A stretch of DNA of 64,000 nucleotides from Sabulicella rubraurantiaca (lineage in GTDB: Bacteria > Pseudomonadota > Alphaproteobacteria > Acetobacterales > Acetobacteraceae): NCBI RefSeq assembly GCF_017355885.1, contig NZ_JAFEUU010000001.1, positions 620,001 through 684,000 on the forward strand. The letters run 5' to 3'. Below the pieces are notes generated by a model that saw only the letters and a list, made by a program, of their open reading frames with translations, made no database searches and had not been told where the DNA came from. Shown here one piece after another: positions 20,791 to 40,287 of this stretch. How positions within the stretch are numbered: position 1 is the stretch's first letter; every line of letters starts with the position of its first letter. Made by a program: the position numbers and the translations under genes.

Positions 20791-22689
20791 ATGATCTCCG
20801 CGATGCGCCGCCTGGCTGGGACCTGGTTCGCCAAGGCCCTCTTCATCCTGCTGATCCTGTCCTTCGCCATCTGGGGCATCGAGGACATGGTCCGCAACAT
20901 CGGCCGCGACACCTCCGTCGCCCGCGTGGGCGGCGAGGCAATCGAGGCGCAGGAGGCACAAGAGGCGACGACGCGCGAGCTGCAGCGCATCACCCGCGCG
21001 CTTCAGGGCAACTTCACCCCTAATGCGACGATCCGCCGCGCCGTGGCGGAACAAGCGGTGGAATCCCTCGTCATCGACCGCGTGGCGCGGCAGGAAGCAC
21101 GGCGCATGGGCATCACCGTCCCCGACGATACGGTGCGCGCCTACGTCTTCCGTATCCCCGGGTTCCAGGGGCTGGATGGCCGATTCTCGCGCGATTCCTT
21201 CAATCAGTTCCTTCGCAACAACGACCTGACCGAGAGCGGCTTCCTGGCGCTGCTGCGTTCCGACCTGTCGCGCCAGCAGCTTTCGGGCGCAGTCCGCTCC
21301 GGTGCCGCCGCGCCCGAGGCGCTGGCCGCCCGCATCCTGGCCTGGCAGCTGGAACGGCGCACCGCCTCGCTGGTCGAGCTGGAATTCGCCGCCGCACCGG
21401 AGCCGGAGGCCCCCACCGAGGCGCAGCTCGCCCGGTTCCACGAGAACAACGCCGCACGCTTCTCCACGCCGGAGTTCCGCGACGTCGCCATCGCCACGCT
21501 GAACGCCGAGCGGATGATCGCTTCGATCGAGGTGAGCGAACGCGACATCGAGGATGCCTACGCCGCGAATCGCGACCAATACGGCGCGCCCGAGCGGCGC
21601 GAGGTGTTCCAGGCCCTCCTGCCCACCGAGGAAGCGGCGCGCGAGGTGGCACGGCTGTGGCGCGAGGAGGGGACGGAGTTCCCTGCCGTCGAGGCGGCCG
21701 CGCGCGAGGCGGGCGGCAGCGCCACGCCGCTTGGCTCCGTCACCCGCACCGAGATGCCGCTCCCGGCTCTGGCAAATGCCGCCTTCGCCCTGGCGGCGGG
21801 CGCGGTGTCCGACCCGGTGCAGACGCCCTTCGGTTGGCATGTGCTGCGCGTCGGCACCGTGCAGCCCGGTGAGACGCAGCCTCTGGAAGCCGTGCGCGAC
21901 CGAATCCGCGCCACGCTGGCCGCCGAGCGCGCCGCGGACGAGGCCTTCGACCGGGCGACCCGCGTGGAGGACACGCTGGCCGGCGGCGCCACGGTGGCCG
22001 AGGCCGCACGGCGCCATGAGCTCGGCTTCGCCGAGGCGCGGATCGACGCCGAGGGCCGCGCGCCGGACGGGACGGAAGTGCCCCTGCCCGTCCCCGCCGC
22101 TGCCCGCGCCGCGGCGCTTCGCGCCATCTTCGCCGCTGAGCGCGGCGCGGCACCCCGCTTCCAGGAAGGCGAATGGGGCTTCATGGCGGTGGAGGTGCGC
22201 GAAGTGATCCCGCCCGCCCTCATCCCGCTGGACGAGGTGCGCCAGCAGGTGACGGAGGCCTTCCTGGCCGACGCGCGCCGCCGATACCAGGAACAGCGCG
22301 CGGCCGCCCTGCTGGCCGCGCTGCGCGCCGGGCGCCCGATGGCCGAGGCCGCCGCCGAAATCGGTGCCACGCCAGAAGTGCTGGGGCCCTTCGGACGTGA
22401 ACCGGGCGGCGGCAACCCGATGCCGCGCGAGCTGCTCGCGCCGGTCTTCGAGCTGCCGGTGAATGGCGCGACCATGGTGGAGCGTCCGCGCTCTTTCGCG
22501 GTGGCGCAGCTTCTTTCGATCCAGCCCGCCGAACTTGGCGAAGCGGCGGAGGCGCTCGGCACGCTGCGCCGCGAGTTGGCGCAGACCATGGCTGAGGATC
22601 TGGAGGCCCAGTATCAGGCGGCGCTGCGCGCCCGCTCCGACGTGCGCATCAACCCGCGCATCGTGCAGCAGATCGCGGGCGGCGAGTGA
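20791..22689 (+). CDS. PpiD-like periplasmic peptidyl-prolyl isomerase/chaperone (SurA_N domain)
   Basis: 632-residue protein anchored by one N-terminal membrane helix (ALFILLILSFAIWGIEDMV, about 16-34). A SurA-type N-terminal chaperone domain follows, with VARVGGEAIEAQE, a long helical region and FQGLDGRFSRDSFNQFLRNN. A parvulin-like domain sits around residues 270-375, recognisable from FGWHVLRVG. Such proteins sit at the Sec exit and help fold exported proteins. The neighbouring tpiA-secG-pyrG and trpE genes form an order often seen in alphaproteobacteria. The stop overlaps the trpE start by one base (TGATG). Confidence 0.9.
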   Translation: MISAMRRLAGTWFAKALFILLILSFAIWGIEDMVRNIGRDTSVARVGGEAIEAQEAQEATTRELQRITRALQGNFTPNATIRRAVAEQAVESLVIDRVARQEARRMGITVPDDTVRAYVFRIPGFQGLDGRFSRDSFNQFLRNNDLTESGFLALLRSDLSRQQLSGAVRSGAAAPEALAARILAWQLERRTASLVELEFAAAPEPEAPTEAQLARFHENNAARFSTPEFRDVAIATLNAERMIASIEVSERDIEDAYAANRDQYGAPERREVFQALLPTEEAAREVARLWREEGTEFPAVEAAAREAGGSATPLGSVTRTEMPLPALANAAFALAAGAVSDPVQTPFGWHVLRVGTVQPGETQPLEAVRDRIRATLAAERAADEAFDRATRVEDTLAGGATVAEAARRHELGFAEARIDAEGRAPDGTEVPLPVPAAARAAALRAIFAAERGAAPRFQEGEWGFMAVEVREVIPPALIPLDEVRQQVTEAFLADARRRYQEQRAAALLAALRAGRPMAEAAAEIGATPEVLGPFGREPGGGNPMPRELLAPVFELPVNGATMVERPRSFAVAQLLSIQPAELGEAAEALGTLRRELAQTMAEDLEAQYQAALRARSDVRINPRIVQQIAGGE

Positions 22690-24173
22690 TGGATTTCGCC
22701 GCCTTCCGCGAGGCGCTGGCCGAAGGCCCGGTGCTTCTGCACCGCGAGCGCGTCTCCGACCTCGACACCCCGGTCGGTGCCTTCCTCAAGCTGGCCGAGG
22801 GGCGGCCCTTTTCCTTCCTGTTGGAAAGCGTCGAAGGCGGCGCGGCGCGCGGGCGCTATTCCGCCATCGGCCTTGCCCCCGACATGATCTGGCGCGTGCG
22901 CGACGGCGTGGCCGAGTGCAACGAGCAGGCTCTCTCCGCACCGCATGCCTTCCAGCGCGAGGCGCTGCCGCCGCTGGAGGCGCTGCGCGCCCGTGTCGCC
23001 GCCTTGCAGATCCGCCGCCCTGCCGGCCTACCCTCCATCGCCGCCGGGCTGTTCGGCTATTTGGGCTATGACATGGTCCGGCAGATGGAGCGCCTCCCGG
23101 CGCTGAATCCGGACGTGCTCGGCATCCCGGAAGCGGTGCTCATCCGGCCAACCCTGGTCGCGGTGTTCGACCACGTGCGCGATGCGCTGACGCTGGTGAC
23201 GCCGGTCTGGGACGCCGCCGACCCGGAAGCCGCCTGGCAGCGCGCGCAGCAGCGCCTGGACGATGCGGAAGAGGCGCTGTCGCGGCCCCTTCCCCGTCCG
23301 GCACCGCCTGCCCGCCTGCCACCGCAGCCGGAGCCGCAATCCAACTTCACGCCGGAAGGCTACATGGCGGCGGTGGAGCGGGCGCGTGAATACATCCGTG
23401 CCGGCGACGCCTTCCAGATCGTGCCGTCGCAGCGCTTTTCGGCGCCCTTCGCGCTGCCGCCCTTCGCGCTCTATCGTGCCCTGCGCCGCATCAATCCGGC
23501 GCCCTACCTCACCTTCTTCGATTTCGGCGCCTTCGCGACGGCCGGCGCCTCGCCCGAAATCCTCGTGGGTTGCCGCAATAGCGAGGTGACGATCCGCCCC
23601 CTGGCGGGCACGCGACGCCGCGGCGCCACCCCGGCGGAGGACCAGGCGCTGGAAGCCGAACTCCTCGCCGATCCGAAGGAGCGGGCGGAGCACCTGATGC
23701 TGCTCGACCTCGGCCGCAACGACGTGGGGCGCGTCGCGGCGATCGGCAGCGTACGCGTGCCGCACCAGTTCGTGATCGAGCGCTACTCCCAGGTCATGCA
23801 CATCGCCTCCGAGGTGAAGGGCAGGCTGCGTCCCGGGCTTTCGGCGTTGGACGCGCTGGTCGCGGGCTTCCCGGCCGGCACGCTTTCCGGCGCGCCGAAG
23901 GTGCGCGCCATGGAGATCATCGAGGAGCTGGAGCCATCGCGGCGGGGCCTCTACGCCGGCGGCCTCGGCTATTTCGGCGTAGATGGAAACATGGATGTGT
24001 GCATCGCCCTGCGCACCGCGCTGGTGAAGGACGGGACGCTGCACGTCCAGGCCGGTGCCGGCGTGGTGGCCGACAGCGACCCGCGCGCCGAGCACGAGGA
24101 ATGCATCGCCAAGGCACGCGCCCTGTTCCGCGCCGCCGAGGAAGCGGTGCGCTTCGCGGCCGGGGGCCGCTGA
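22689..24173 (+). CDS. trpE: Anthranilate synthase component I
   Basis: 494-residue chorismate-using enzyme making anthranilate with the ammonia-supplying TrpG. Signature blocks are GRYSAIGLAPD, FQIVPSQRFS, ASPEILVG, PLAGTRRRG, LDLGRNDVGRVA and the catalytic AGFPAGTLSGAPKVRAMEII, then GYFGVDGNMDVCIALRT. The ATG at 22689 is used; a GTG one codon upstream is possible. The usual partners trpG, trpD and trpC do not follow; a strong hairpin ends the transcript and convergent aromatic catabolism genes begin. Confidence 0.96.
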   Translation: MDFAAFREALAEGPVLLHRERVSDLDTPVGAFLKLAEGRPFSFLLESVEGGAARGRYSAIGLAPDMIWRVRDGVAECNEQALSAPHAFQREALPPLEALRARVAALQIRRPAGLPSIAAGLFGYLGYDMVRQMERLPALNPDVLGIPEAVLIRPTLVAVFDHVRDALTLVTPVWDAADPEAAWQRAQQRLDDAEEALSRPLPRPAPPARLPPQPEPQSNFTPEGYMAAVERAREYIRAGDAFQIVPSQRFSAPFALPPFALYRALRRINPAPYLTFFDFGAFATAGASPEILVGCRNSEVTIRPLAGTRRRGATPAEDQALEAELLADPKERAEHLMLLDLGRNDVGRVAAIGSVRVPHQFVIERYSQVMHIASEVKGRLRPGLSALDALVAGFPAGTLSGAPKVRAMEIIEELEPSRRGLYAGGLGYFGVDGNMDVCIALRTALVKDGTLHVQAGAGVVADSDPRAEHEECIAKARALFRAAEEAVRFAAGGR

Positions 24174-24256: not shown

Positions 24257-25003
24257 CTAGCGCTTCCGGTTGAGGAAGGCGCCCATCATCCGCGCCGGCT
24301 CGTCGGTCGTGAAAGCTTGGCCGAAGGCGCCGACTCCGGCCTCGATTCCCTCGTCCAGCGTCAGCCCCTCCCAGCGGGAGATCAGTGCCTTCTGGTCGCG
24401 GATGGCGCGCGGCCCGGCCTCGCGCAGCAAGTGCAGCCACTCCTCCACCGCCGCGTCCAGCCCGGCGCGAGGAACGACGCGCTCCAGGAAGCCCCATTCC
24501 TCGACGGTTCGGGCGTCTAGCGTCTCAGCGAGCAGGAGGAGGCGCCGCGTCCGCCCCCAGCCTATCAGGTTGGGCAGCATCGCGGCCTCCACCACAGAGG
24601 GGATTCCGACCCGCACCTCAGGCATGCCGAACTTCGCTTCCTCGGCCGACACGCGCAGGTCGCAGGCCGCCGCGATCTCCATCCCCGCTCCCAGGCACCA
24701 GCCCTGGATGCGGGCGATGACCGGCACCGGGCAAGCGCGGATGGCGCTGTTCACCGCATGGATGCGGGAAATGAAGGCACGCCCGACCTCGGGAGTCCGG
24801 ATGGCGCCCATCTCGGAGATGTCGGCGCCGCCGATGAAGGCGCGGTCGCCCTCGCCGGTCAGCACCACGGCTCGGATATCCTCCTCCACCGCGAAGGCGC
24901 GCGCCATCTCCTCCAGGATCGGCGAGTTCACCGTGTTCAGCTTGGCGTGGTTCAGCAGCGTGACACGGCGAATGTCGCCGTCTCTCCGGATCTCGACCTT
25001 CAC
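24257..25003 (-). CDS. Enoyl-CoA hydratase/isomerase family protein
   Basis: 248-residue crotonase-fold enzyme acting on acyl-CoA thioesters. The oxyanion-hole stretches are AFIGGADISEM and IQGWCLGAGMEIAAACDLRV, followed by AKFGMPEVRVGIPSVVEA with a catalytic-type acidic residue. It starts with GTG overlapping the stop of the upstream monooxygenase (GTGA) and is the third gene of the leftward arm of the aromatic-CoA cluster. A role in hydrating or opening an alicyclic enoyl-CoA is inferred from context. A second family member lies at 29792 in the other arm. Confidence 0.9.
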   Translation of the reverse strand: MKVEIRRDGDIRRVTLLNHAKLNTVNSPILEEMARAFAVEEDIRAVVLTGEGDRAFIGGADISEMGAIRTPEVGRAFISRIHAVNSAIRACPVPVIARIQGWCLGAGMEIAAACDLRVSAEEAKFGMPEVRVGIPSVVEAAMLPNLIGWGRTRRLLLLAETLDARTVEEWGFLERVVPRAGLDAAVEEWLHLLREAGPRAIRDQKALISRWEGLTLDEGIEAGVGAFGQAFTTDEPARMMGAFLNRKR

Positions 25004-26208
25004 CGCGCAAATCCCGCCATCACTGCATATCCCTTGCTGATCGCCTCCAGCTCCTCCGGGGCGATGACATCCTCGATGCGCGCGAAGCCGTCAGGGGCGC
25101 GCTCGCTCACGACGTCCACCACGCGTTCCGGTCCGCCGCGCCGATTGCTCAGCACGATGTCGCGCGTCGAAGGCAGTCGCTCACCCTCATAGGCCAGCAG
25201 CGCCTCCTCTACCGGTAGCGAAGCCAGCTTTGCCGCGAGGCAGCGCGCATCGAGCACCGCCTGGGAGGCGCCGTTGGAGCCAACCGGATACATCGGATGC
25301 GCCGCGTCGCCGAGCAGCGTCACGCGCCCCTCCGTCCAGCGCGGCAGCGGGTCGCGGTCGCACATCGGATATTCCCAGAACTCGGGCGTGGCGCGGACCA
25401 GCGCCTCCACGTCCAGCCAGGGAACACGGAAGCGGCGCAGATGCGGCAGCACTTCCTCCAGCTTGCCGGGGCGCGACCAGTCCTCCCGGCGGGGCGGTGG
25501 TCCGGACGGGTCGCCGATCTGCGCGCAGACTACCCAGTTGGTGAGGCGCGTGCCCGGCGCCGAGCCCGGCGCGATGGGGTAGAGGACCAGCTTCTCCTTC
25601 ATGTCGCCGGCGACGATCATGCAGTCGCCACCCTCGTATTCCGGCCAGTCCAGCGCGCCGCGCCACATCTGGATCCCGTTCCAGCGTATGCCGCCATCCT
25701 CCGGGTGCATCCTGCGGCGGATCGCGGAATGGATGCCGTCCGCCCCCACCAGCGCGGCGCCGCGAAGCTCCTCGCCGCCAGGGAGCGTCACGGTCACGCC
25801 CTCGGCATCCTGACCGAAGGACTCCACACGGCTGCCGGCGCGGAGCGCCGCGCCAAGCCGCTCCTGGGCCGCGCGCCACAGCACGCCGTGCAGCCGCCCA
25901 CGATGGATGCTGAACTGCGGCACGTCATGTCCCGCATGCATCCCGCGCGCCTCGCTGCGAATCACCTGCCCGAAGCGGTTGAGGTAGCGCAGCTCCCGCG
26001 TGCGGATCGCCACTGCGTCCAGCGCCGGCAACAGGCCCAGCGCCGCGAGCTCGCGGATGGCATGCGGCAAGGTGTTGATACCCACGCCGAGTTCCCGCAC
26101 CTCCGGCGCCGCTTCCAGAACGACGCAGGGAATGCCGCGCTCATGCAGCGACAGGGCGAGGGTGAGGCCGCCAACACCACCCCCCGCGATCAGGACGGGC
26201 AGTGTCAT
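25000..26208 (-). CDS. PhzS-like FAD-dependent monooxygenase
   Basis: 402-residue group A flavin monooxygenase. The FAD site is GGGVGGLTLA near the N-terminus, the central motif LVGADGIHSAIRRRMHP follows, and the flavin-binding VTLLGDAAHPMYPVGSNGASQA is near residue 300. The pattern, with GVGINTLPHA, ELRYLNRFG and WRGALDWPEYEGGDCMIV, resembles phenazine monooxygenase PhzS more than classical salicylate hydroxylase. It lies between the fused monooxygenase/reductase and the enoyl-CoA hydratase with overlapping stops and starts. A hydroxylation step on an aromatic intermediate or a side substrate is inferred. Confidence 0.87.
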   Translation of the reverse strand: MTLPVLIAGGGVGGLTLALSLHERGIPCVVLEAAPEVRELGVGINTLPHAIRELAALGLLPALDAVAIRTRELRYLNRFGQVIRSEARGMHAGHDVPQFSIHRGRLHGVLWRAAQERLGAALRAGSRVESFGQDAEGVTVTLPGGEELRGAALVGADGIHSAIRRRMHPEDGGIRWNGIQMWRGALDWPEYEGGDCMIVAGDMKEKLVLYPIAPGSAPGTRLTNWVVCAQIGDPSGPPPRREDWSRPGKLEEVLPHLRRFRVPWLDVEALVRATPEFWEYPMCDRDPLPRWTEGRVTLLGDAAHPMYPVGSNGASQAVLDARCLAAKLASLPVEEALLAYEGERLPSTRDIVLSNRRGGPERVVDVVSERAPDGFARIEDVIAPEELEAISKGYAVMAGFAR

Positions 26209-28520
26209 TCCGCCGCGCGGCCCAGCGGGGCCGGGGCATGGCTGGCCGGACGGGCCTTGCGCCGAAGCTCCATCATCTCCTCCCTCGCGCGCGCGGCGGT
26301 GCGGAACAGTGCCTGCTTGCCGTACTCGTACTGGATCGGCGTCGCCACATCGCGGACGCCGTATTCTGCCGCGGCATGGAGGGTGAAGGAAGGGTCGGCC
26401 AGATGCGGCCGCCCCAGCGCCACAAGGTCGGCACGCCCGGCCGCAACGATGGTGTTCACCTGATCCGCCGTGGTGATCGAGCCGACGCACATCACCGCCA
26501 TGCCTGCCTCGTTGCGGATCATGTCCGCCCAGGGAAGTTGGAACATGCGGCCGTAGCTCGGCAGAGCGTCATGCACGGTCTGGCCGGTCGAGACGTCGAT
26601 GAGGTCGCAGCCTGCGTCACGGAAGGCGTGGGCAATGGCCAGCGTATCCGCGTCGGAGATCCCGCCATCGGCCCAGTCGGTGGCGGAGATGCGGACCGAC
26701 ATCGGCCGGTCGGCGGGCCATTCGGCGCGCAGAGTCCGGAACACCTCCAGCGGGAAGCGCAGCCGGTTCTCGACCGGCCCGCCATACTCGTCAGCCCTGT
26801 GGTTGGTCAGCGGCGAGAGGAAACTGGCAAGCAGGTAGCCATGGGCGCAGTGGAGCTCCAGCATGTCGAAGCCGCATTCGAGACCACGCCGCGCAGCCGC
26901 CACGAACTCCGCCTTCACCCGCTCCATGTCCTCCTGCGTCATCTCGCGCGGCACCTGACTGTGCGGGAAGTACGGGATCGCGCTGGCCGACAGGATGGGC
27001 CACGCACCTTCCTCCAGAGGCTGATCCATCCCGTCCCACATCAGCCTGGTTGCCCCCTTCCGCCCGGCATGGCCAAGTTGCAGCGCGATGCGTGCGCCGG
27101 CCCGGTGGGCATTGGCGACGATGCGGGTCCAGGCCGCCTGCTGCGCGTCGTTCCACATTCCGGTGCAGCCTGGGGTGATGCGCGCATCCGGCGCCGGGCA
27201 AGTCATCTCCGTGACGATCAGCCCCGCGCCGCCCATGGACCGCGCGCCGTAATGGATCAGGTGAAAGTCGGTGGGCACCCCTTCCTCGGCCGAGTACATG
27301 CACATGGGCGAGACGACGACGCGGTTCGCGACCTCCATGCCCCGCAGGCGGAAGGGCTGAAACATGGGCGGGTTATCCGGCTTTCCGCCCGGCGCCTCTG
27401 CCGCCACCAGCTCCTGGACTTCCCGCACGAAGCCAGGTGCGCGGAGCAGGAGGCTATCCCAGGTAATGGCCTTAGAGCGGGTCATCACGCCAAAGGCGAA
27501 GCGCGCCGGGGCGAAGTGCCAGAAGCGCCGCACATGCTCGAACCAGACGAGTGAAACGTCGGCCGCGTGCTGCGTTTTCTCCACCTCTTCGCGTCGGCCG
27601 GATTCGTAGCGTCGCAAGCAGGTGGCGACGTCACCCCTCGCCATGAAGGCGCGGTGCAGGCCGATCGCATCCTCCATCGCCAGCTTCGTGCCGCTGCCGA
27701 TGGAGAAATGCGCGCTGGCCTTGGCGTCGCCGAGCAGGACGAGCCTGCCGCTCACCCAGCGCTCGCAGCGAATGGTCGGAAAGCGCCGCCAGTGCGAGCG
27801 ATTGGTGATCAGGCGATGCCCCTGCAACTCCTCCCGGAACACGCTCTCCAGGAACCGGGCGCTCTCCGCCTCGTCCATCGCACCCAGCCCGGCACGGACG
27901 AAGGTCTCGGGGTCTGTCTCCATGACCCAGGTCGAGCGACCCGGCTGGTACTGGTAGCAATGGGCGATGAAGATGCCTTCGGTCCGCTCCTTGAAGAAGA
28001 AGGTGAAGGCGTCGAAAGGACGCGTCGAACCCATCCAGGCGAAGCGATTGGGACGCAGGTCGAGGGTGGGCCGGAACTCCTCGCGAAAGTGCTCGCGGAT
28101 CGGGGAATTGATGCCATCCGCCGCGACGACGAGGTCGGCGTCGCGAAAATCCTCCGGCTGCGCCTCACGCCCGAACTCCAGCTCCACGCCGAGACGGCGA
28201 GCGCGGTCCTGCAGCAGCAGCAGCAGCGTGCGGCGGGAGCAGCCGCAGAACCCGTTGCCGCCGATGCGGTGCCGCGCGCCCTTCGCAACCACCTCGATGT
28301 CGTCCCAATAGGCGAAGCTCCCGGTGATGGCGCGGTAGGAGGGCTCGTCCGCCTCCTTGAAGGCATCAAGCGTGGCATCGCTGAACACGACCCCGAAGCC
28401 GAAGGTGTCGTCCGGCCGGTTGCGTTCCACCACCGTGACGTGCGCCTTCGGCATGTCGCGCTTCATCAGGATGGCGAAGTAAAGGCCGGCGGGGCCGCCG
28501 CCGATGATGGCGATGCGCAT
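26205..28520 (-). CDS. Fused aryl-CoA flavin monooxygenase / old yellow enzyme reductase (2-aminobenzoyl-CoA monooxygenase/reductase or salicylyl-CoA 5-hydroxylase type)
   Basis: 771-residue two-domain flavoenzyme. Residues 1-380 form a group A FAD monooxygenase (GGGPAGLYFAI at 7-17, VVAADGINSPIREHF, and LLGDAKASAHFSIGSGTKLAMEDA near 262). Residues 387-771 form an NADH:flavin oxidoreductase of the old-yellow-enzyme family (FQPFRLRGMEVANRVVVSPM, IQLGHAGRKG, and ELHCAHGYLLASFLSPLTNHR). This fusion is known from 2-aminobenzoyl-CoA monooxygenase/reductase and from salicylyl-CoA 5-hydroxylases. It would hydroxylate and then reduce the ring of an aryl-CoA. A CTCCT-complementary Shine-Dalgarno lies 7 bases before the ATG. 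It is divergent from the SDR gene across a shared control region. Confidence 0.92.
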   Translation of the reverse strand: MRIAIIGGGPAGLYFAILMKRDMPKAHVTVVERNRPDDTFGFGVVFSDATLDAFKEADEPSYRAITGSFAYWDDIEVVAKGARHRIGGNGFCGCSRRTLLLLLQDRARRLGVELEFGREAQPEDFRDADLVVAADGINSPIREHFREEFRPTLDLRPNRFAWMGSTRPFDAFTFFFKERTEGIFIAHCYQYQPGRSTWVMETDPETFVRAGLGAMDEAESARFLESVFREELQGHRLITNRSHWRRFPTIRCERWVSGRLVLLGDAKASAHFSIGSGTKLAMEDAIGLHRAFMARGDVATCLRRYESGRREEVEKTQHAADVSLVWFEHVRRFWHFAPARFAFGVMTRSKAITWDSLLLRAPGFVREVQELVAAEAPGGKPDNPPMFQPFRLRGMEVANRVVVSPMCMYSAEEGVPTDFHLIHYGARSMGGAGLIVTEMTCPAPDARITPGCTGMWNDAQQAAWTRIVANAHRAGARIALQLGHAGRKGATRLMWDGMDQPLEEGAWPILSASAIPYFPHSQVPREMTQEDMERVKAEFVAAARRGLECGFDMLELHCAHGYLLASFLSPLTNHRADEYGGPVENRLRFPLEVFRTLRAEWPADRPMSVRISATDWADGGISDADTLAIAHAFRDAGCDLIDVSTGQTVHDALPSYGRMFQLPWADMIRNEAGMAVMCVGSITTADQVNTIVAAGRADLVALGRPHLADPSFTLHAAAEYGVRDVATPIQYEYGKQALFRTAARAREEMMELRRKARPASHAPAPLGRAAE

Positions 28521-28558
28521 GGCGCTGCTCCTGGAGCCCGTCGGGGCGGAGAATATCC

Positions 28559-28588
28559 TTGCGGCGGGCATGGCCGCAATGCTTTAAG
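28559..28588 (+). promoter_or_regulatory. Candidate promoter for the SDR-MarR-ligase operon
   Basis: TTGCGG (28559-28564) and TTTAAG (28583-28588) are 18 bases apart and could serve as -35 and -10. The predicted transcript start falls at or a few bases before the SDR ATG at 28597, and no Shine-Dalgarno is visible, so the mRNA may be leaderless. The match to consensus is moderate. Confidence 0.4.
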
Positions 28589-28598
28589 CTCAAAGCAT
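28579..28598. promoter_or_regulatory. Probable MarR operator palindrome
   Basis: ATGCTTTAAGCTCAAAGCAT is a 20-base inverted repeat with perfect 7-base outer arms around an AGCT centre. It covers the candidate -10 and the first two bases of the SDR start codon, in the shared control region of two divergent catabolic operons. The size and symmetry fit a MarR dimer site, and a MarR gene is the second gene of the operon. Confidence 0.7.
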
Positions 28599-29319
28599 GT
28601 TGCGGTTCGACGGGCAGCGTGCCTTGGTGAGCGGCGGGGGTACGGGCATCGGCCTGGCCTGCGCCCGTGCGCTGACCGAAGCCGGCGCCATCGTCACCGT
28701 GCTGGGCCGGCGCGAGGCGCCCTTGCGTGCGGCGGTCGATTCCGGCGCAGCCGCCGAATGCATCGCCGCCGATGCCCGGACGCCCCCTTCCCTTCCTTCC
28801 GCCTCCATCCTCGTGAACGCGGCGGGTGCGGCCGTCTCTGCGCCCTTCCTCAAGACGGATGACGAGACGTTCCGCGCCACGCTGGAAGCCAACCTCATGA
28901 GCGCCGTGGCACTGACCCGCGCCTTGCTGCCGCGGATGCTGGAGGCGCGCTGGGGCCGCGTGGTCAACGTCGCCTCCACGGCCGCGCTGAAGGGATATGC
29001 CTATGTCGCGCCCTATGTCGCGGCGAAGCATGCGCTGCTCGGCTTCACCCGTGCCCTTGCGCTGGAAGTGGCGACGCGCGGCGTCACGGTGAACTGCGTC
29101 TGTCCCGGCTTCACGGAGACACCTCTGCTGCAGGAAAGCATCGCGCGCATCGGCGCCATGACGGGCCGCGACCCGGCCGCCGCCCGCGCCGCGCTAGCCT
29201 CGGGCAATCCACAGGGCCGCCTCTTCACGCCGGAGGAAGTCGCCGAGGCCGTGCTGTTCCTCTGCGCCGCGCCGGGGGTGAACGGCGCCGCGCTGCCCGT
29301 TTCGGGCGGGGAGGTGTGA
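28597..29319 (+). CDS. SDR-family oxidoreductase (3-hydroxyacyl-CoA dehydrogenase-like)
   Basis: 240-residue short-chain dehydrogenase. The cofactor site is SGGGTGIG (12-19), NAAG is at 74-77, and the catalytic residues are Ser127, Tyr140 and Lys144. The family end VNCVCPGFTETPLL and an FLCAAPGVNGAALPVSGGEV tail are typical. In aromatic-CoA clusters such enzymes oxidise hydroxyacyl-CoA intermediates; that role is inferred from context. It is the first gene of the rightward arm; its stop overlaps the MarR start (TGATG). No Shine-Dalgarno precedes the ATG. Confidence 0.9.
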   Translation: MLRFDGQRALVSGGGTGIGLACARALTEAGAIVTVLGRREAPLRAAVDSGAAAECIAADARTPPSLPSASILVNAAGAAVSAPFLKTDDETFRATLEANLMSAVALTRALLPRMLEARWGRVVNVASTAALKGYAYVAPYVAAKHALLGFTRALALEVATRGVTVNCVCPGFTETPLLQESIARIGAMTGRDPAAARAALASGNPQGRLFTPEEVAEAVLFLCAAPGVNGAALPVSGGEV

Positions 29320-29795
29320 TGGACGCCGAGACCGCCCTCGCCGGGCTGCCACCGGGCCGGAAGGACAATCTCCGCCTTTGGCTGCGCCTCCTCACCTGCG
29401 CGACACTGATGGAGCGTGAGATCCGTCGCCGCCTGCGCGCGGAGTTCAACACCACCCTGCCCCGCTTCGACATGCTCGCCGCGCTGGACCGCGCACCGGA
29501 GGGTCTGACCCTCGGCGAGGTGTCACGGCGGATGATGGTGAGCAACGGCAACGTCACCGGCCTTGCCTCGCGCCTGGAGGAGGAAGGGCTGGTGGAACGG
29601 CGCCTGGATGCCAATGACCGTCGCGCCTTCCGCCTGCGCCTGACTCCGCTGGGCGCGCGCGAGTTCGCCCGCCAGTCCCGCGCGCATGAGGTTTGGGTAA
29701 ACGCCCTTCTCGCCGGGGTGACGCCAGCGGACCGCGCAGCGCTGCACGCATTGCTCGGGCGCGCCAAGCATTCCATCGCCGAGGGAAGCGCATGA
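29319..29795 (+). CDS. MarR-family transcriptional regulator
   Basis: 158-residue winged-helix dimeric regulator. Residues about 35-110 hold the family pattern: [47 protein letters not shown], then [16 protein letters not shown]. MarR proteins of aromatic catabolism usually repress until an aryl-CoA or aromatic acid binds. The palindrome at 28579-28598 upstream of the operon is the obvious target and would give autoregulation. ATG at 29319 is used; a GTG one codon upstream is possible. It overlaps both neighbours. Confidence 0.92.
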
Positions 29796-30585
29796 GCCTG
29801 CCGCAACATCTCCGCAGCGAGAGCGAGGGCGGCGTCGTCACCCTCACCCTCGACCGGCCCGCGCGCAAGAATCCGCTGACCTTCGACAGCTATGCGGAGT
29901 TGGTCGCCATCTTCCGTGCCGCCGCGACGGATGATTCCATCCGCGCCTTCGTCGTGACGGGTTCCGGCGGCAATTTCTGCTCGGGCGGCGACGTGCACGA
30001 GATCATCGGCCCGCTGCTGGAACGCGACACGAAGGGGCTGATGCGCTTCACCGCCATGACAGGTGACTTGGTGAAGGCGATGCGCGCCTGCCCGCAGCCC
30101 ATCGTCGCGGCGGTGGATGGGGTGGCGGCTGGGGCTGGCGCCATCATCGCCATGGCCTCGGATATCCGCCTCGGCACGCCACGCGCCCGCGTCGCCTTCC
30201 TGTTCAATCGCGTCGGCCTTGCGGGGTGCGACATGGGGGCCTGCGCGATTCTTCCGCGCATCATCGGACAGGGCCGCGCCTCCGAACTCCTTTTTACCGG
30301 TCGCGCCATGCGCGCCGAGGAAGGGGAACGCTGGGGCTTCTTCAACCGGCTGGTGGAAGGCGATGTGCTGGCGGAGGCGCAGGCCCTTGCGGCGGAGATC
30401 GCCGCTGGCCCCGGCTTCGCCCACGGCATGACCAAGCGAATGCTGGCGATGGAATGGGCCATGGGCGTCGAGCAAGCGATCGAGGCCGAGGCCGTTGCCC
30501 AGGCCCTGTGCATGACCACCCAGGATTTCCGCCGTGCCTATGAGGCCCTCGCGGCGAAGCGAACACCCGTCTTCCAGGGGGATTG

Positions 30586-30586
<1 letters not shown>
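29792..30586 (+). CDS. Enoyl-CoA hydratase family protein
   Basis: 264-residue crotonase-fold protein. It opens with [25 protein letters not shown] and carries the oxyanion-hole motifs [11 protein letters not shown] and [20 protein letters not shown], then [28 protein letters not shown]. Related proteins sit in 2-aminobenzoyl-CoA and benzoyl-CoA type clusters and probably hydrate or open the dearomatised ring. It overlaps MarR (ATGA) and its stop overlaps the dehydrogenase start. It is distinct from the hydratase at 24257. Confidence 0.92.
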
Positions 30587-31739
<1,153 letters not shown>

Positions 31740-31740
<1 letters not shown>

Positions 31741-33344
31741 TGGACAGCTTCTGCCGCGACAACCTGCCGCCGCCCGAGGAATGGCCGGACCTCACGCCCC
31801 TGCCCTACAAGGCGCGGCTGAATTGCGCGACGGAATTGCTGGACCGCAACCTCCAGACGCGCGCCCATCATCCGGCGGTGGTGACGCCATCCGAGACCCT
31901 TACCTACGCGCAACTGGCGGAGCGCGTGAACCGCATCGCCAACGTGCTGGTAAAGGACCTCGGCCTCGTGCCGGGAAACCGCGTCCTGCTGCGTTCTGCC
32001 AACAACGCCTGGATGGTCGCCGCGTATTTCGCGGTGCTGAAGGCCGGCGGGGTGGTGGTCGCCACCATGCCGCTGCTGCGCGCGCGGGAACTGGGCCAGA
32101 TCCTCCGCAAGGCATGCATCACCCACGCGCTGTGCGACGCGCGCCTCGCCGAGGAACTCGCCGCCGCCGAGGCGCCGGAACTCCGGCACATCCTCCATTG
32201 GGGCGACGGGGAGCTCGAGGCGCGCTGCGCTGCTCAGCCCCCACAATTTCAAGCGGCGGACACAGCGCAGGACGATGTGTGCCTCATCGGCTTCACCTCC
32301 GGCACCACCGGTGAGCCGAAGGGCACGATGCATTTCCACCGGGACATGCTCGCGATCTGCGACCATTACTCCGCGCAGGTGCTGCGTCCCTCGGCGGAGG
32401 ACCGGTTCATCGGCTCGCCACCGCTGGCCTTCACCTTCGGGCTAGGCGGGTTGGTGCTGTTTCCCTTCCATGTCGGCGCCACCGCCATCCTTCTGGAGCG
32501 CGCGCCGCCGGAGGAACTGGCCGCCGCCATCGCCCGGTACCGTGCGACGATCTGCTTCACCGCCCCCACGGCCTACCGCGCCATGGCGGCCAAGGCGGGT
32601 GAGCACGATCTTTCCTCTTTGCGGAGATGCGTCTCGGCCGGGGAACACCTGCCCAAGCCCATCTTCGAAGCTTGGCAGAAGGTAACCGGGCTGAAGCTCC
32701 TCGATGGCATCGGCGCGACGGAGATGCTCCATATCTTCATTGCCGCGCCGGAGGAGGCGGTCCGCCCCGGCGCCACGGGCCTTCCCGTCCCGGGCTACGA
32801 GGCCAAGATCATCGGCCCCGATGGGACGGAGGTGCCGCGCGGCACTCCGGGGCGTCTTGCCGTACGCGGGCCGACCGGCTGCCGCTACCTCGCTGATCCG
32901 CGGCAGCGCAACTACGTCCAGCATGGCTGGAACATCACTGGCGACAGCTTCTTCCAGGACGAGGACGGGTATTTCCACTTCCTGGCCCGCAACGACGACC
33001 TGATCGTCAGCGCGGGCTACAACATCGCCGCGCCGGAGGTGGAGGAGGCGCTGCTGTCCCATCCTTCCGTGAAGGAAGCCGGAGTCGTGGGCATACCGGA
33101 CGAGGAACGCGGCATGGTCGTCACGGCCCATGTCGTGCTGCATCCCGATTATCCGCGCGACGACACCACCACCCGCGCCCTGCAGGATCACGTGAAATCC
33201 ATCATCGCGCCCTACAAATACCCGCGCAGGGTAATGTTCCACGACGCCCTCCCACGCACGGAAACCGGCAAGCTGCAGCGCTTCGCCCTTCGCAAGCTTT
33301 CCCTTGCGCCCGACGCCGCGCCCTGGCAGAGCCCCGCCCCATGA
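31740..33344 (+). CDS. Aryl-CoA ligase (2-aminobenzoate/benzoate-CoA ligase family)
   Basis: 534-residue ANL-superfamily ligase forming an aryl-CoA from acid, ATP and CoA. The AMP-binding P-loop is [11 protein letters not shown] (185-195). Later blocks are [54 protein letters not shown] and the catalytic Lys in [11 protein letters not shown] near the end. The N-terminal pattern [12 protein letters not shown]...[13 protein letters not shown] is like 2-aminobenzoate- and benzoate-CoA ligases. Together with the fused monooxygenase/reductase it supports anthranilate or salicylate as the substrate. It overlaps both neighbours. Confidence 0.9.
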
Positions 33345-33736
33345 GCCTCACCGCGCTTCACCCGAAGGGATGGCCCGCGCCGCGCGGCTACGCCAACGGC
33401 CTGATGGGCGATGGCCGCCTTGTCATCCTGGGTGGGCAAGTCGGCTGGGACACCCAGGGACAATTCGCCGAGGGCTTCGTCGCGCAGACGCGGCAGGCGC
33501 TGCGGAACATCCTCACCGTGATGGCCGAGGCCGGCGGCCGGGCCGAGCACATTGCCCGCCTCACCTGGTACGTCACCGATATAACGGAATATCGCGAGAG
33601 CCTGGCGGAACTCGGCCCCGCCTACCGTTCCGTCATGGGACGGCATTTCCCCGCCATGACGCTGGTGCAGGTGGTCGCGCTGGTGGAGCCGGAGGCGAAG
33701 GTGGAGATCGAGGCGACCGCCATCCTGCCACCGTGA
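33341..33736 (+). CDS. RidA-family enamine/imine deaminase
   Basis: 131-residue protein of the RidA/YjgF/UK114 family, whose members hydrolyse reactive enamines or imines to ketones and ammonia, or act in other aromatic pathways. Visible features are [49 protein letters not shown] and a C-terminal [22 protein letters not shown]. Its place in an overlapping chain with the aryl-CoA ligase and dehydrogenase suggests it releases ammonia from an amino-substituted ring intermediate, which favours 2-aminobenzoate over salicylate as pathway substrate (inference). Confidence 0.88.
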
Positions 33737-34761
33737 GCGCGGAAGCACGCATCCGCGAGCAGGCTCTCGCCCTGGGCTTCGACGCGGTTCGCTTCACCAC
33801 CGCCACACTGCCGCCCGAGGCGCGCGCAAGGCTGGATGCCTTCCTGGACGAAGGCTCCCACGGCACGATGGAGTGGATGGAGACGCGGCGCGAACAGCGC
33901 GCCCATCCGCAATCCCTCTGGCCCGAGGCGGTGAGCGTCGTCGTGCTCGGCACCAACTATGCACCGGACTACGACCCATTAGAGAGCCTCGGTCAGCGGG
34001 ACCGCGCCACCATCTCCTGCTACGCGCAGGGGAAGGATTATCACGACGTCGTGAAGAAGCGCCTGAAGGCGCTGGGCCAGTGGATGGCGCGCGAGTTCAA
34101 GGGGGCGCCGCTCAAGGTCTTCGTGGACACCGCCCCCGTGATGGAGAAGCCCCTGGCCCAGCAGGCGGGCCTGGGCTGGCAGGGCAAGCACACCAACCTC
34201 CTGTCCCGCGAATGGGGCAACTGGCTCTTCCTGGGCGAGATCTACACGACCCTGCCCCTCCAGCCCGACAAGCCGGAGCGCGAGCATTGCGGCACCTGCC
34301 GCGCCTGCCTGGATTCCTGTCCCACCAGCGCTTTCCCGGCCCCCTTCCGGCTCGATGCGCGGCGCTGCCTCTCCTACCTCACCATCGAGCACCGTGGCCC
34401 GATCCCGGAGGAGTTCCGCCGCCCGATGGGGAACCGCATCTATGGCTGCGACGACTGCCTGGCCGCCTGCCCCTGGAACAAGTTCGCCCGGAAGGCGCGT
34501 GAGATGGCCTTCCAGCCGCGCCACGACGTTGCGCCCTCCCTTGCCGAACTGGCATCGCTGGACGACGCCGCCTTCCGTGCGCGCTATGCCGGCAGCCCGG
34601 TGAAGCGCATCGGCATCGGGCGCTTCCGCCGGAACCTCGCCATCGCCATCGGCAACAGCCACGACCCGTCGCTCCGCCCCCAGGCCGAGGCGCTGGGCGC
34701 CGATGCCGACCCGATCGTAGCCGAGGCGGGGGCCTGGGCGCTGCGGGAACTCGCCGCATGA
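33733..34761 (+). CDS. queG: Epoxyqueuosine reductase
   Basis: 342-residue cobalamin- and Fe-S-dependent enzyme that makes queuosine from epoxyqueuosine in tRNA. The two 4Fe-4S ligand groups are clear: C186, C189, C192 with C196 ([12 protein letters not shown]), and C212 with C239, C242, C246 ([15 protein letters not shown]). VDTAPVMEK near 131-139 contains the catalytic Asp, and a helical tail ends the protein. The start is a GTG overlapping the RidA stop, so it is translationally coupled to the catabolic genes. queC follows by ATGA. Confidence 0.96.
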
Positions 34762-35456
34762 CGGAAGGCGCGCTGGTCCTGTTCAGCGGGGGGCAGGACA
34801 GCGCCACCTGCCTCGCCTGGGCAATGCGCCGCTTCGAGAGGGTGGAGACGCTGGGCTTCGATTACGGCCAGCGTCACAAGGTCGAGCTGGATTGCCGTGC
34901 TGCGCTGCGCGACGGCATGGCTTGCCCCGCCCTGGGCGAGGACCACCTGCTCTCCCTGCCTGTCCTGGGCGCGATCAGCGACACGGCCCTGACGCGCGAC
35001 GCCGAGATCACCATGCAGGCCGACGGGCTGCCCAGCACCTTCGTGCCCGGCCGCAACCTCGTCTTCCTGACGCTGGCGGCCGCGCTCGCCTATCGGCGGG
35101 GTCTGCGGCACATCGTCGCCGGCATGTGCCAGACGGATTACTCCGGCTACCCGGATTGCCGCGACGATACGGTGAAAGCCATGCAGGTGGCTCTGAACCT
35201 GGGCATGGACCGGCGGTTCGTCCTCCACACCCCGCTGATGTGGCGCGACAAGAAGGCAACCTGGGAGCTTGCGGAGGCTCTGGGCGGCCCGGCGCTGGTA
35301 GAGCTCATCCGCCGGGAGTCCCACTCCTGCTACCGGGGTGTACGCGGCACACTCCATCGCTGGGGGCATGGCTGTGGCGATTGCCCGGCTTGCGACTTGC
35401 GCGCCCGGGGCTGGGATGCCTATGCCGCGTCGCATGATCCTCTCTCCCCGCCTTGA
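34758..35456 (+). CDS. queC: 7-cyano-7-deazaguanine (preQ0) synthase
   Basis: 232-residue ATP-dependent enzyme converting 7-carboxy-7-deazaguanine to preQ0 for queuosine. The N-terminal PP-loop is [14 protein letters not shown] and FDYGQRH follows. [21 protein letters not shown] and [15 protein letters not shown] are QueC hallmarks. The C-terminal Cys residues (SCYRGV...[11 protein letters not shown]) form the zinc site. It overlaps queG by ATGA and the following transporter gene by about 35 bases. Confidence 0.97.
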
Positions 35457-35985
35457 GGGCTTCCTTTTCCTGCTCGGCTTCGGGCTGTGCATCCCGATAG
35501 CCAACTGGCTGATCGGCAATGCCGGCACGGTCTGCGTGCCGAACGGCCCCTGCCTGATCCCCGTGGCGCCTGGGCTGATGGCGCCCTCCGGTGTGCTGAT
35601 GATCGGCCTTGCCTTGGTGCTGCGGGACCTCGTGCAGCGGCGTCTAGGACTGGGTTGGGCAGCCACCGCCATCTCCGCGGGGACGGTGCTCTCCGCCTTT
35701 CTGGCGCCGCCCGCACTCGTCGTCGCCTCGGCCACGGCCTTCTTCCTGTCGGAAGCTGCTGACCTTGTCGTCTACACGCCCTTGCAGCGGCGCGGGCTGA
35801 CGCGGGCGGTGCTGGCCTCCTCCGCCGTTGGGCTGGTGGTGGACAGCGTGGTCTTCCTTTGGCTCGCCTTCGGCAGCCTGGATTACTTGGCCGGCCAGGT
35901 GATCGGGAAGGCGTGGATGGTCGTGTTGGCCCTTCCGCTCATTGCCCTGCTGCGTCGGCGCGACGAGCGACTGGGCCTCGCCTGA
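35422..35985 (+). CDS. VUT family membrane protein (YhhQ-like putative queuosine-precursor transporter)
   Basis: 187-residue integral membrane protein with about six predicted helices. [46 protein letters not shown] and a later [15 protein letters not shown] are typical of the VUT/YhhQ family, whose E. coli member imports preQ0. Its position right after queG and queC fits precursor salvage. The start is uncertain: ATGs at 35416, 35422 and 35434 all lie inside the end of queC. It ends 3 bases before the convergent ThDP-enzyme gene. Confidence 0.85.
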
Positions 35986-39294: not shown

Positions 39295-40263
39295 ATGCTC
39301 CGCCGCACTCTCGCCGCCGCTGGCCTCGCCGCGATGATGGCCAGCCCGGCCTTCGCGCAGACCCAGCTCACCATCCAGCATCCGCTGCCGCTGAACAGCC
39401 ACTACGGCGCGGGCGCCTCCGCGCTGAAGGAAGCTTTCGAGCGCGCGACCAATGGCCGCTACCGCGTCAACATTCAGCGCAACGACAATGAGCGCGAGGT
39501 GATCGAGAGCGTGCAGATCGGCACGGCGGAGTGCTATCTCGGCTCTACTGGCCCGGTCGGGAATTTCGTGCCCGAGGTGCGGAACCTCGACGTGCCCTTC
39601 CTGTTTCGCGACTATCCGCATGCGCGTGGCGTGCTGGACAGCGAGATCGGCCAGCAGCTTCTTTCCCGCTTCCAGCCGCGTGGCCTTGTCGGCGTGGCCT
39701 GGATGGAGAACGGATTCCGCCACCTGACCAACTCGCGGCGCGAGGTGAATACTCCGACCGATATGCGCGGGCTGAAGGTCCGCACCATGGAGAACCAGGT
39801 CCACATGCGCGCCTTCAGCGCGCTGGGCGTCCTGCCGACGCCGATGGCCTTCTCCGAGCTGGTGCCGGCGCTGCAGCAGGGCACGGTGGACGGGCAGGAA
39901 AACCCGATTCCGGTGATCGTGGCCAACAACCTGAATCAGGTGCAGCGCTTCCTGACGCTGACGGGCCACGTCTATTCCCCGGGCGTGCTGATCTGCAATC
40001 CGGCCTTCCTGGCGCGCATGTCGGCCGCCGACCGCAACGCCTTCAACGAGGCGGCGCGTCAGGCCGCCCGCGCGAACCGTGACCGCGTCTCGGCCGATGA
40101 GGCGTCGGGCGTGGAGGAGCTGCGCAGGCGAGGCATGACCGTGGTGACACAGGTGGACAACGCGGCCTTCCAGCAGGCCCTCGCCCCCTCGGCCGGGCAG
40201 ATCGAGCAGCAGCTCGACCGCGCCCTTCTCCAGCGCATCCGCAGCTGGCGCCCGGCACAGTAA
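39295..40263 (+). CDS. dctP: TRAP transporter solute-binding subunit (DctP type)
   Basis: 322-residue periplasmic binding protein. A signal peptide (RRTLAAAGLAAMMASPAFA) precedes the mature TQLTIQHPLPLNSHYGAGA. Family motifs are VQIGTAECYLGSTGPV, FLFRDYPHARGVLDSEIG, MENGFRHLTNSRREVNTPTDMRGLKVRTMEN with the conserved carboxylate-binding Arg, and VPALQQGTVDGQENP. A GGGAGG Shine-Dalgarno lies about nine bases before the ATG. It feeds the DctQ and DctM subunits encoded downstream. The ligand is probably an organic or acyl-amino acid, given the divergent deacylase (inference). Confidence 0.95.
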   Translation: MLRRTLAAAGLAAMMASPAFAQTQLTIQHPLPLNSHYGAGASALKEAFERATNGRYRVNIQRNDNEREVIESVQIGTAECYLGSTGPVGNFVPEVRNLDVPFLFRDYPHARGVLDSEIGQQLLSRFQPRGLVGVAWMENGFRHLTNSRREVNTPTDMRGLKVRTMENQVHMRAFSALGVLPTPMAFSELVPALQQGTVDGQENPIPVIVANNLNQVQRFLTLTGHVYSPGVLICNPAFLARMSAADRNAFNEAARQAARANRDRVSADEASGVEELRRRGMTVVTQVDNAAFQQALAPSAGQIEQQLDRALLQRIRSWRPAQ

Positions 40264-40287
40264 GCCGCTCAAGGGCCGGGCGAGGCG

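What the first reader, a model, noticed from the sequence alone, without database searches (positions are those of the whole stretch)
24257..33736. RidA as the candidate deaminase of a CoA-dependent anthranilate pathway
The fused aryl-CoA monooxygenase/reductase, ligase, dehydrogenase and hydratases match the aerobic 2-aminobenzoyl-CoA route. Hydroxylation and reduction of the ring would leave an enamine, exactly the chemistry RidA proteins hydrolyse. The RidA gene overlaps the ligase gene. This would explain nitrogen release in a pathway where that step is not well defined, and argues against salicylate as substrate.
Basis: inference. Interest (0 to 1): 0.7.

Follow-up and report, generated by a model that had tools for sequence, protein, structure and literature searches.

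The report
Nitrogen-release enzyme candidate for anthranilate breakdown
A small Rid-family protein sits at the end of a bacterial gene cluster that probably breaks down anthranilate (a nitrogen-bearing aromatic acid), and comparison across genomes suggests it removes the nitrogen, although it lacks the arginine that known Rid deaminases need, so this must be tested with purified enzymes.

Summary
In detail: window 24257-33736 holds a 2-aminobenzoyl-CoA monooxygenase/reductase-type (ACMR) cluster ending in a Rid gene that overlaps the ligase gene by 4 nt. The link is not chance: Rid in 67 of 67 readable named loci; in 397 Pseudomonadota genomes 83 have ACMR, 82 this Rid, 81 both; in 149 genomes of one other family 24 have ACMR, 18 of these Rid, and the six without have other neighbours (dioxygenase, FAH hydrolase, thioesterase). 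Anthranilate fits better than salicylate: a distant Rid-bearing cluster has a confirmed anthranilate-CoA ligase, and one sister operon carries tryptophan dioxygenase and kynureninase; but a kynureninase is near none of the 67. Main correction: this is no standard RidA. The arginine that deaminase activity depends on is methionine in 121 of 123 distinct sequences. [quoted passage not shown] Against: the arginine-less Rid proteins tested so far were inactive, and eight same-genus relatives keep Rid without the pathway, with altered conserved residues. No activity was shown.

The parts
33341..33736 (+). Rid-family protein (131 aa), Met106 in place of the canonical Arg105; [quoted passage not shown]
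   Evidence: PF01042 74 bits; M invariant in the 18 rows of alignment A1; overlaps the ligase gene by 4 nt; AlphaFold model pLDDT 95.7, Rid structures as best matches
31740..33344 (+). aryl-CoA ligase, probably 2-aminobenzoate-CoA ligase
   Evidence: best solved relative is anthranilate-CoA ligase 4wv3 (337 bits, against 254 for benzoate-CoA ligase 2v7b); 53% identical to the ligase of Arthrobacter Rue61a pAL1
30586..31740 (+). acyl-CoA dehydrogenase
   Evidence: PF00441 141 bits; in 62 of 67 loci
29792..30586 (+). crotonase-family protein ECH2 (PRK08258); a ring-opening role is a guess
   Evidence: NF006107 445 bits, cut-off 330; in 67 of 67 loci
29319..29795 (+). MarR-family regulator
   Evidence: PF12802 54 bits; in 65 of 67 loci
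28597..29319 (+). short-chain dehydrogenase/reductase
   Evidence: PF00106 147 bits; in 67 of 67 loci
28583..28594 (.). candidate MarR operator TTTAAGCTCAAA (1 mismatch to TTTAAGCTTAAA) between the divergent ACMR and SDR genes
   Evidence: 62 of 74 ACMR-SDR gaps of the named loci have it with at most 2 mismatches; 0.6 expected in letter shuffles, 0.5 in random stretches of the same loci; motif chosen after seeing it
26205..28520 (-). fused flavin monooxygenase / old-yellow-enzyme reductase (2-aminobenzoyl-CoA monooxygenase/reductase type)
   Evidence: NF006101 1090 bits, cut-off 1078; both domains; alignment A2
25000..26208 (-). FAD-dependent monooxygenase (PRK07538), accessory
   Evidence: NF005720 543 bits, cut-off 400; only in 16 of 67 loci
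24257..25003 (-). crotonase-family protein ECH1 (PRK06143), accessory
   Evidence: NF004795 312 bits, cut-off 283; only in 5 of 67 loci at the threshold used

Best explanation
The cluster degrades anthranilate aerobically as CoA thioesters. The ligase makes 2-aminobenzoyl-CoA. [quoted passage not shown] The Met-type Rid then hydrolyses this enamine to 2,5-dioxocyclohexanecarboxyl-CoA plus ammonia. The rest of the cluster opens and oxidises the ring; ECH2 doing the ring opening is a guess. Rid needs no carboxylate-binding arginine because the substrate's carboxyl is masked as a thioester. Shown: gene content, overlap, co-occurrence, Arg-to-Met. Inferred: substrate, reaction, and the reason for Met.
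For: Rid in 67 of 67 readable named ACMR loci; in 81 of 83 ACMR genomes among 397; in 18 of 24 in one other family. In G172 Rid lies 0.98 Mb from the otherwise complete cluster, so linkage alone does not explain its presence; in G140 and G395 Rid lies with the SDR-to-ligase genes while ACMR is elsewhere. Rid is kept with different downstream genes: SDR/ECH/ACAD (window), small cupin plus FAH hydrolase without an annotated hydratase (Arthrobacter, Tsukamurella, Rhizobium; these gene tables are incomplete), HCDH plus thiolase (Mesorhizobium). This points to a shared early step. It is absent at loci with gentisate dioxygenase-like/FAH/thioesterase neighbours. Substrate: anthranilate-CoA ligase activity was shown for the Rue61a plasmid ligase, whose cluster has a Met-type Rid; TDO and KynU genes lie inside a sister operon ending in Rid. 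A CoA ester of C7H8O4, the formula of the deaminated acid, was seen only in anthranilate-grown Rue61a cells (PMC3534580, passages). A Rid protein acting on a beta-enamine is known (RutC). Relatives without the pathway core changed otherwise invariant Rid residues.
Against: Rid proteins without the arginine have shown no deaminase activity so far, and RutC R104A is inactive. Eight same-genus genomes, and G046, keep Rid without ACMR. The unstable ACMR product may deaminate spontaneously, and the C7H8O4 ester could be an extraction product. A kynureninase was found near none of the 67 named loci and the own genome has neither kynureninase nor tryptophan dioxygenase, so no anthranilate source is seen in this lineage. 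Nothing was assayed.
Confidence: 0.58

Rival explanations
1. Rid belongs to the pathway but deaminates or quenches a side product (for example an oxidised, quinone-imine form of 5-hydroxyanthraniloyl-CoA), while the main nitrogen release is spontaneous.
For: 5-hydroxyanthraniloyl-CoA is reported when NADH is limiting, and a CoA ester read as hydroxyanthraniloyl-CoA was seen in anthranilate-grown Rue61a (PMC3534580, passages). The authors of PMC8113886 see Rid proteins as accelerating reactions that also run without enzyme.
Against: A by-product cleaner need not be kept in 81 of 83 ACMR genomes.
Confidence: 0.15
2. Rid is not a deaminase. The crotonase ECH2 (or another cluster enzyme) removes the amino group, and Rid does another job such as tautomerisation or binding.
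For: Arg105 is absent. Rid4-7 proteins, which lack it, are reported without deaminase activity, though few were tested. ECH2 is as conserved as Rid in the named loci (67 of 67).
Against: Rid persists in clusters with no enoyl-CoA hydratase annotated in the stretch shown (gene tables incomplete). The Tyr17 and Glu120 equivalents of the Rid active site are kept in 74 of 74 and 73 of 74 rows, the last row being cut off.
Confidence: 0.17
3. The cluster is for salicylate (salicylyl-CoA to gentisyl-CoA), as the database name of the flavoenzyme says, and Rid is a bystander.
For: NCBIfam names the fusion salicylyl-CoA 5-hydroxylase. Aryl-CoA ligases are promiscuous (PMC8388817, passages). No kynureninase near the 67 named loci.
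Against: No relative of the gentisate dioxygenase-like, FAH hydrolase or thioesterase genes used as queries was found in the window (tblastn E up to 1e-4). Loci of the same enzyme family with those neighbours lack Rid. TDO/KynU sit in a sister operon. Best solved ligase relative is anthranilate-CoA ligase.
Confidence: 0.07
4. Rid was kept for a partnership with the neighbouring FAD monooxygenase and ECH1, or for queG co-transcription, and is only loosely tied to the anthranilate route.
For: In eight same-genus relatives Rid stays beside queG without ACMR; FAD monooxygenase is found in seven of them and ECH1 in seven.
Against: FAD monooxygenase is in only 16 and QueG in only 6 of 67 named loci, which all have Rid. 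Core-less Rids changed W36 (6 of 8), N19 (5 of 8) and Y17 (3 of 8).
Confidence: 0.03

Closest known systems
Aerobic 2-aminobenzoyl-CoA (abm) pathway of Azoarcus evansii
   Same: CoA ligase and monooxygenase/reductase, then beta-oxidation (PMC4539516, passages). Schuehle 2001 (PMC95408) is not held; I recall that its abstract mentions a MarR-like regulator and a 'putative translation inhibitor protein' in the cluster, the latter an old name for this family. Not checked.
   Different: The window has an accessory FAD monooxygenase and ECH1. A Rid deaminase role was in none of the texts seen here.
RutC of E. coli (Rid family, 3-aminoacrylate deaminase)
   Same: A small Rid protein encoded in a catabolic operon; hydrolyses a beta-enamine; I propose the same type of reaction.
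   Different: RutC needs Arg104 and acts on a free carboxylate. Here Met, and a CoA thioester as proposed substrate. Window Rid scores 32 bits on the RutC model against a cut-off of 169.
Canonical RidA (2-iminobutanoate/2-iminopropanoate deaminase)
   Same: Fold and family; Tyr17 and the Glu120 equivalent are kept.
   Different: Arg105 is Met; TIGR00004 score 52 bits is below the cut-off of 106.
Salicylyl-CoA/gentisate route (SdgC type)
   Same: Homologous fused flavoenzyme (49% identical to L185 and L186; that those two are of this route is inferred from neighbours).
   Different: Neighbours are gentisate dioxygenase-like, FAH-type hydrolase and thioesterase-like genes; no Rid.
2-aminomuconate deaminase (AmnE)
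   Same: Rid-family pathway deaminase in breakdown of an aromatic amine (PMC6742747, passages).
   Different: Acts on ring-opened 2-aminomuconate, not on a CoA thioester.

Membership tests
Aerobic 2-aminobenzoyl-CoA pathway (abm type) | fused FAD monooxygenase + old-yellow-enzyme reductase | tested here: met
   both domains, NF006101 over its cut-off
Aerobic 2-aminobenzoyl-CoA pathway (abm type) | aryl-CoA ligase in the same cluster | tested here: met
Aerobic 2-aminobenzoyl-CoA pathway (abm type) | beta-oxidation-type enzymes in the cluster | tested here: met
   acyl-CoA dehydrogenase, two crotonases, SDR
Aerobic 2-aminobenzoyl-CoA pathway (abm type) | activity with 2-aminobenzoate | not testable with these tools
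   indirect only: ligase relatives, KynU and/or TDO near some clusters of other genomes, but near none of 67 named loci
Rid family (PF01042) | domain score over cut-off and Rid fold | tested here: met
   74.3 against 27.3 bits; model matches Rid structures (first row 6tcd, E 2.6e-11; 5v4f TM 0.81)
Arginine-dependent imine deaminases (RidA, Rid1-3, RutC) | Arg105 (carboxylate-binding) present | tested here: not met
   Met in the window protein and in 121 of 123 distinct relatives
Arginine-dependent imine deaminases (RidA, Rid1-3, RutC) | conserved Tyr17 and Glu120 | tested here: met
   Y17 in 74 of 74 rows and E122 in 73 of 74, the last row being cut off; the match of residue numbers is mine, by alignment
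Arginine-dependent imine deaminases (RidA, Rid1-3, RutC) | enamine/imine deaminase activity | not testable with these tools
   needs purified protein
RutC subfamily | TIGR03610 over cut-off | tested here: not met
   32.0 against 169.1 bits
Salicylyl-CoA/gentisate route | gentisate dioxygenase and FAH hydrolase beside the flavoenzyme | tested here: not met
   no relative of the L186 dioxygenase or FAH genes in the window (tblastn E up to 1e-4); both kinds of gene in L185 and L186

The most novel reading that the evidence does not exclude
[quoted passage not shown] It supplies the missing nitrogen-release step of aerobic anthranilate breakdown and shows that the arginine rule for Rid deaminases holds only for substrates with a free carboxylate.
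Probability: 0.45. Interest if true: 0.75.

Novelty: new variant of a known kind. Interest (0 to 1): 0.62.

Why it matters
The first product of the pathway, a non-aromatic amino-thioester, is cited from a 1990 paper (Langkau et al.; reference list seen). A 2025 review's legend for three hybrid routes, this one among them, marks hypothetical steps by dashed arrows and speculative ones by question marks (PMC12521323, passages; the figure itself was not seen). A 2022 curation left out tryptophan degradation via anthraniloyl-CoA monooxygenase/reductase for lack of knowledge (PMC9007349, passage). A named candidate with a near one-to-one genomic partner makes the nitrogen-release step directly testable. 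If the Met-type protein is active, the rule that Arg105 predicts Rid deaminase activity (PMC5619798, PMC4433059) needs a substrate-based correction.

Tried and rejected
Salicylate as substrate: considered and put low (see rivals). Chance neighbour: rejected. 'Rid tracks nitrogen' as a proven statement: not claimed, because the Rid-less loci could also handle a nitrogen-bearing substrate (the dioxygenase also matches a 5-aminosalicylate dioxygenase model, below its cut-off) and cyclase-family genes lie beside Rid-less loci too (L232, L235). 'Rid always means ACMR': rejected in this genus. Kynureninase as a general marker: rejected, 0 of 67 named loci (tblastn with one query, at least 60 bits). 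Azoarcus evansii paper: not held, so its content is recalled. The PDB search with the fusion shows matches to the two halves separately in the 60 rows listed of 147. Rid subfamily number (Rid4-7) was not assigned: no CDD models among the tools. Structure model and fold search confirm the family only; Rid active sites hold residues of adjacent monomers, and no trimer or ligand was modelled. Tree of Rid proteins: the non-actinobacterial cluster sequences (Deinococcus included) form one group together with L195 and L196 at weak support (80/81), and the four actinobacterial ones fall apart from them, so one origin of Met is not shown.
Full report
What is there. The window cluster reads, left to right: ECH1(-), FAD monooxygenase(-), ACMR-type fusion(-), then divergently SDR, MarR, ECH2, acyl-CoA dehydrogenase, ligase, Rid (+). 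Every neighbouring pair within each arm overlaps by 1 to 4 nt (coordinates), and the two arms are 76 bp apart. The fusion passes the NCBIfam cut-off for 'bifunctional salicylyl-CoA 5-hydroxylase/oxidoreductase' (1090 against 1078 bits); in my view that name does not tell salicylyl- from 2-aminobenzoyl-CoA enzymes. The Rid gene also overlaps queG by 4 nt. Upstream lies trpE.

Is the Rid link real? A protein scan with the fusion gave 80 named loci (the best 80 of 468 relatives, so close kin are favoured). Of these, 67 had at least 5.6 kb on the cluster side and 13 were too short to judge. In the 67: Rid 67, ligase 67, ECH2 67, SDR 67, MarR 65, acyl-CoA dehydrogenase 62; FAD monooxygenase 16, ECH1 5. 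So Rid belongs to the core and the FAD monooxygenase and ECH1 do not. In 397 genomes drawn from the phylum (at least 90% complete asked for), 83 hold ACMR (profile A2, E up to 1e-150) and 82 hold this Rid type (profile A1, E up to 1e-20). 81 hold both, where 17 would be expected (Fisher p 3e-81, not corrected for kinship). Rid without ACMR: G404, which has MarR, ECH2, acyl-CoA dehydrogenase and ligase beside Rid. Of 85 ACMR loci, 74 have Rid within 20 kb (median gap 5.1 kb). The other 11: two genomes without Rid (G299, G352), one second ACMR copy (G247), five with Rid on another contig, three with Rid far away on the same contig (38 kb, 0.98 Mb, 1.8 Mb). In G172 (0.98 Mb) Rid is apart from an otherwise complete cluster; in G140 and G395 it lies with the SDR-to-ligase genes and ACMR is elsewhere.

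A built-in control. The Rid-less loci are different in kind. L185 (G299) and L186 (G352) carry a gentisate 1,2-dioxygenase-like gene (306 and 322 bits, below the cut-off of 442), and FAH-type hydrolase and thioesterase genes by similarity to annotated ones; SDR, ECH2, acyl-CoA dehydrogenase and this ligase type were not found there. In the family of G352 (149 genomes, G352 included; a small overlap with the 397) 24 have the fusion and 18 have Rid, all 18 with the fusion. Within 1.5 kb of the fusion, the six without Rid show the dioxygenase-like gene in 2, FAH in 4, thioesterase in 5, MarR in 6, and SDR or ECH2 in none. Of the 18 with Rid, 16 show SDR and/or ECH2; L239 shows no other marker and L253 shows Rid and acyl-CoA dehydrogenase. 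On a tree of 58 fusions (L122, cut by the locus border, dropped from 59) the nine Rid-less ones need three changes, nested among Rid-bearing ones. Caveat: rows were labelled by locus for L188 and L200, whose genomes have Rid elsewhere, and by genome for L189, L191, L193 and L239; by genome alone two changes would remain (my reading of the printed tree). L200 shows an FAH-type gene but no dioxygenase-like one.

Which substrate? Arthrobacter sp. Rue61a pAL1 has Rid, FAH hydrolase, cupin, thioesterase, ligase and fusion together. The plasmid ligase ARUE_113p00220, which I take to be the one beside the fusion, gave anthranilate-CoA ligase activity in E. coli (PMC3534580, passages). That paper also reports a C7H8O4 CoA ester only in anthranilate-grown cells, which might be cyclohexanedione-carboxyl-CoA according to its authors; it notes that the ACMR product is unstable in acid, so an extraction artefact is possible. 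It further reports that a mutant without the plasmid still grows on anthranilate, so paralogues must exist. Sagittula stellata has one run of genes: fusion, SDR, MarR, hydratase, acyl-CoA dehydrogenase, ligase, tryptophan 2,3-dioxygenase, kynureninase, thioesterase, Rid. Kynureninase also lies within about 10 kb of the fusion in Aminobacter and Arthrobacter ERGS1:01, and between ligase and Rid in G140 (by similarity). Against this, a kynureninase or a cyclase-family gene was found in none of the 67 named loci, which are the window's nearest kin, and the window's own genome has no kynureninase and no tryptophan dioxygenase. Isatin hydrolase and other sources were not searched in the whole genome. 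In all, 14 plasmid regions were opened: 13 of the 60 fusion hits listed and one of the 40 Rid hits listed. All 14 have a Met-type Rid by profile; the L205 record carries no annotation. A tblastn of the whole window found no relative of the dioxygenase-like, FAH, cupin or thioesterase queries at E up to 1e-4.

The Rid protein itself. It lacks the arginine that binds the substrate carboxylate in RidA. The position is Met in all 18 rows of A1 and in 121 of 123 distinct sequences scoring at least 100 bits on a profile built from Met-type rows; one has Ser (L195, not beside ACMR) and one is cut off. One Met-type protein (L196) is also not beside ACMR. The Met holds in four actinobacterial plasmids and one of Deinococcus. 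Of the seven other Rid genes of the own genome, five could be aligned: two have Arg and three Ser. PMC4433059 (sections 5 and 6 and passages) and PMC5619798 (passages) treat the arginine as the mark of deaminase activity, and PMC8113886 (passages) reports that RutC R104A is inactive. This is the strongest argument against a deaminase. The counter-argument is chemical inference: the arginine holds a free carboxylate, and the proposed substrate has none. The Tyr and Glu of the site are kept, and W11, N19, W36 and W76 are invariant in 74 of 74 rows.

The awkward relatives. Among 60 relatives, 24 have the fusion (full or long fragments) and 32 have Rid. 23 have both (G036 among them, though its Rid genes are not beside its fusion); the one fusion genome without Rid, G017, is 57% complete. 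Fisher p is 3e-8. Nine have Rid without the fusion, eight of them in the same genus (two of the eight are under 90% complete). In those eight, Rid stands beside queG, with FAD monooxygenase and ECH1 each found in seven, and the core is absent; L223 keeps a 228-bp piece similar to part of the fusion's reductase half, which could be a deletion scar or an assembly effect. All eight changed one to three of 34 otherwise invariant Rid positions: W36 in six, N19 in five, Y17 in three; Met106 and Glu122 stay. The 34 positions were chosen from 18 pathway-bearing sequences, but W36, N19 and Y17 are also unchanged in all 74 rows. The simplest reading is loss of the core with relaxed or changed function of Rid, but a separate role with the FAD monooxygenase cannot be excluded.

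Most likely mechanism. Ligase, then hydroxylation and reduction by the fusion, then Rid-catalysed hydrolysis of the enamine to 2,5-dioxocyclohexanecarboxyl-CoA, then ring opening and oxidation. The early steps follow the Azoarcus evansii chemistry as reported in PMC4539516 (passages). Rid remains in clusters whose downstream genes differ, which suggests a shared step soon after the fusion. That a crotonase opens the resulting beta-keto ring, like the anaerobic ketocyclohexane hydrolase BadI, is recalled analogy only.

Prior knowledge. Searches of the open-licence library listed no paper that I saw assigning a Rid protein to this pathway; most subscription papers are not held, lists were capped, and of the papers opened only passages or sections were read. 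PMC6449761 (passages) predicts a role of Rid-family proteins in regulons for benzoate and related compounds. From memory, the 2001 Azoarcus paper already listed a 'putative translation inhibitor protein' in its clusters, so the gene's presence is probably not new; a function, the Met, the distribution and the contrast with the Rid-less loci are what this work adds.

Regulation. Between fusion and SDR genes, 62 of 74 named loci have TTTAAGCTTAAA with at most two mismatches (0.6 expected in letter shuffles; 0.5 in random stretches of the same loci), which fits one MarR-type switch for both arms. The motif was chosen after seeing it.

Noticed in passing
28583-28594: Palindrome-like TTTAAGCTCAAA just before the SDR start; a near form recurs in the same gap of 62 of 74 related loci: candidate operator of the cluster's MarR protein.
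   Followed up: partly
L217-L224 (eight same-genus relatives): The anthranilate core is missing, but Rid is kept beside queG, with the FAD monooxygenase and ECH1 each found in seven; Rid has changed W36, N19 or Y17 in six of the eight.
   Followed up: partly
L223:1195-1422: A 228-bp piece similar to part of the fusion's reductase half lies between FAD monooxygenase and Rid, possibly a deletion scar; the contig is only 3 kb long.
   Followed up: no
33733-35985: Rid overlaps queG (epoxyqueuosine reductase) by 4 nt; queC and a Vut_1 transporter follow. queG beside the cluster is seen in 6 of 67 named loci.
   Followed up: no
22686-24173: trpE (anthranilate synthase component I) lies next to a probable anthranilate-degrading cluster; seen in 1 of 67 named loci.
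   Followed up: no
L207:12001-21923: A Sagittula stellata plasmid joins tryptophan dioxygenase and kynureninase genes to the CoA pathway genes in one run that ends in thioesterase-Rid.
   Followed up: no
L120, L121, L123, L206, L207, L209, L210, L212: A small thioesterase gene directly precedes Rid in these plasmid clusters, overlapping it in some; no relative of the Paracoccus one was found in the window.
   Followed up: partly
L185, L186: Rid-less fusion loci carry gentisate dioxygenase-like and nitrilase-like genes (both) and an indolepyruvate oxidoreductase beta-family gene (L185); their true substrate is open.
   Followed up: partly
L195, L196: A second, more distant Rid type (about 122-128 bits on profile A1) occurs in one other family; of two read, one has Ser and one Met at the Arg place, neither beside the fusion.
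   Followed up: no
39295-43445: TRAP transporter genes and a Peripla_BP_6 binding protein follow downstream; link to the cluster not examined.
   Followed up: no
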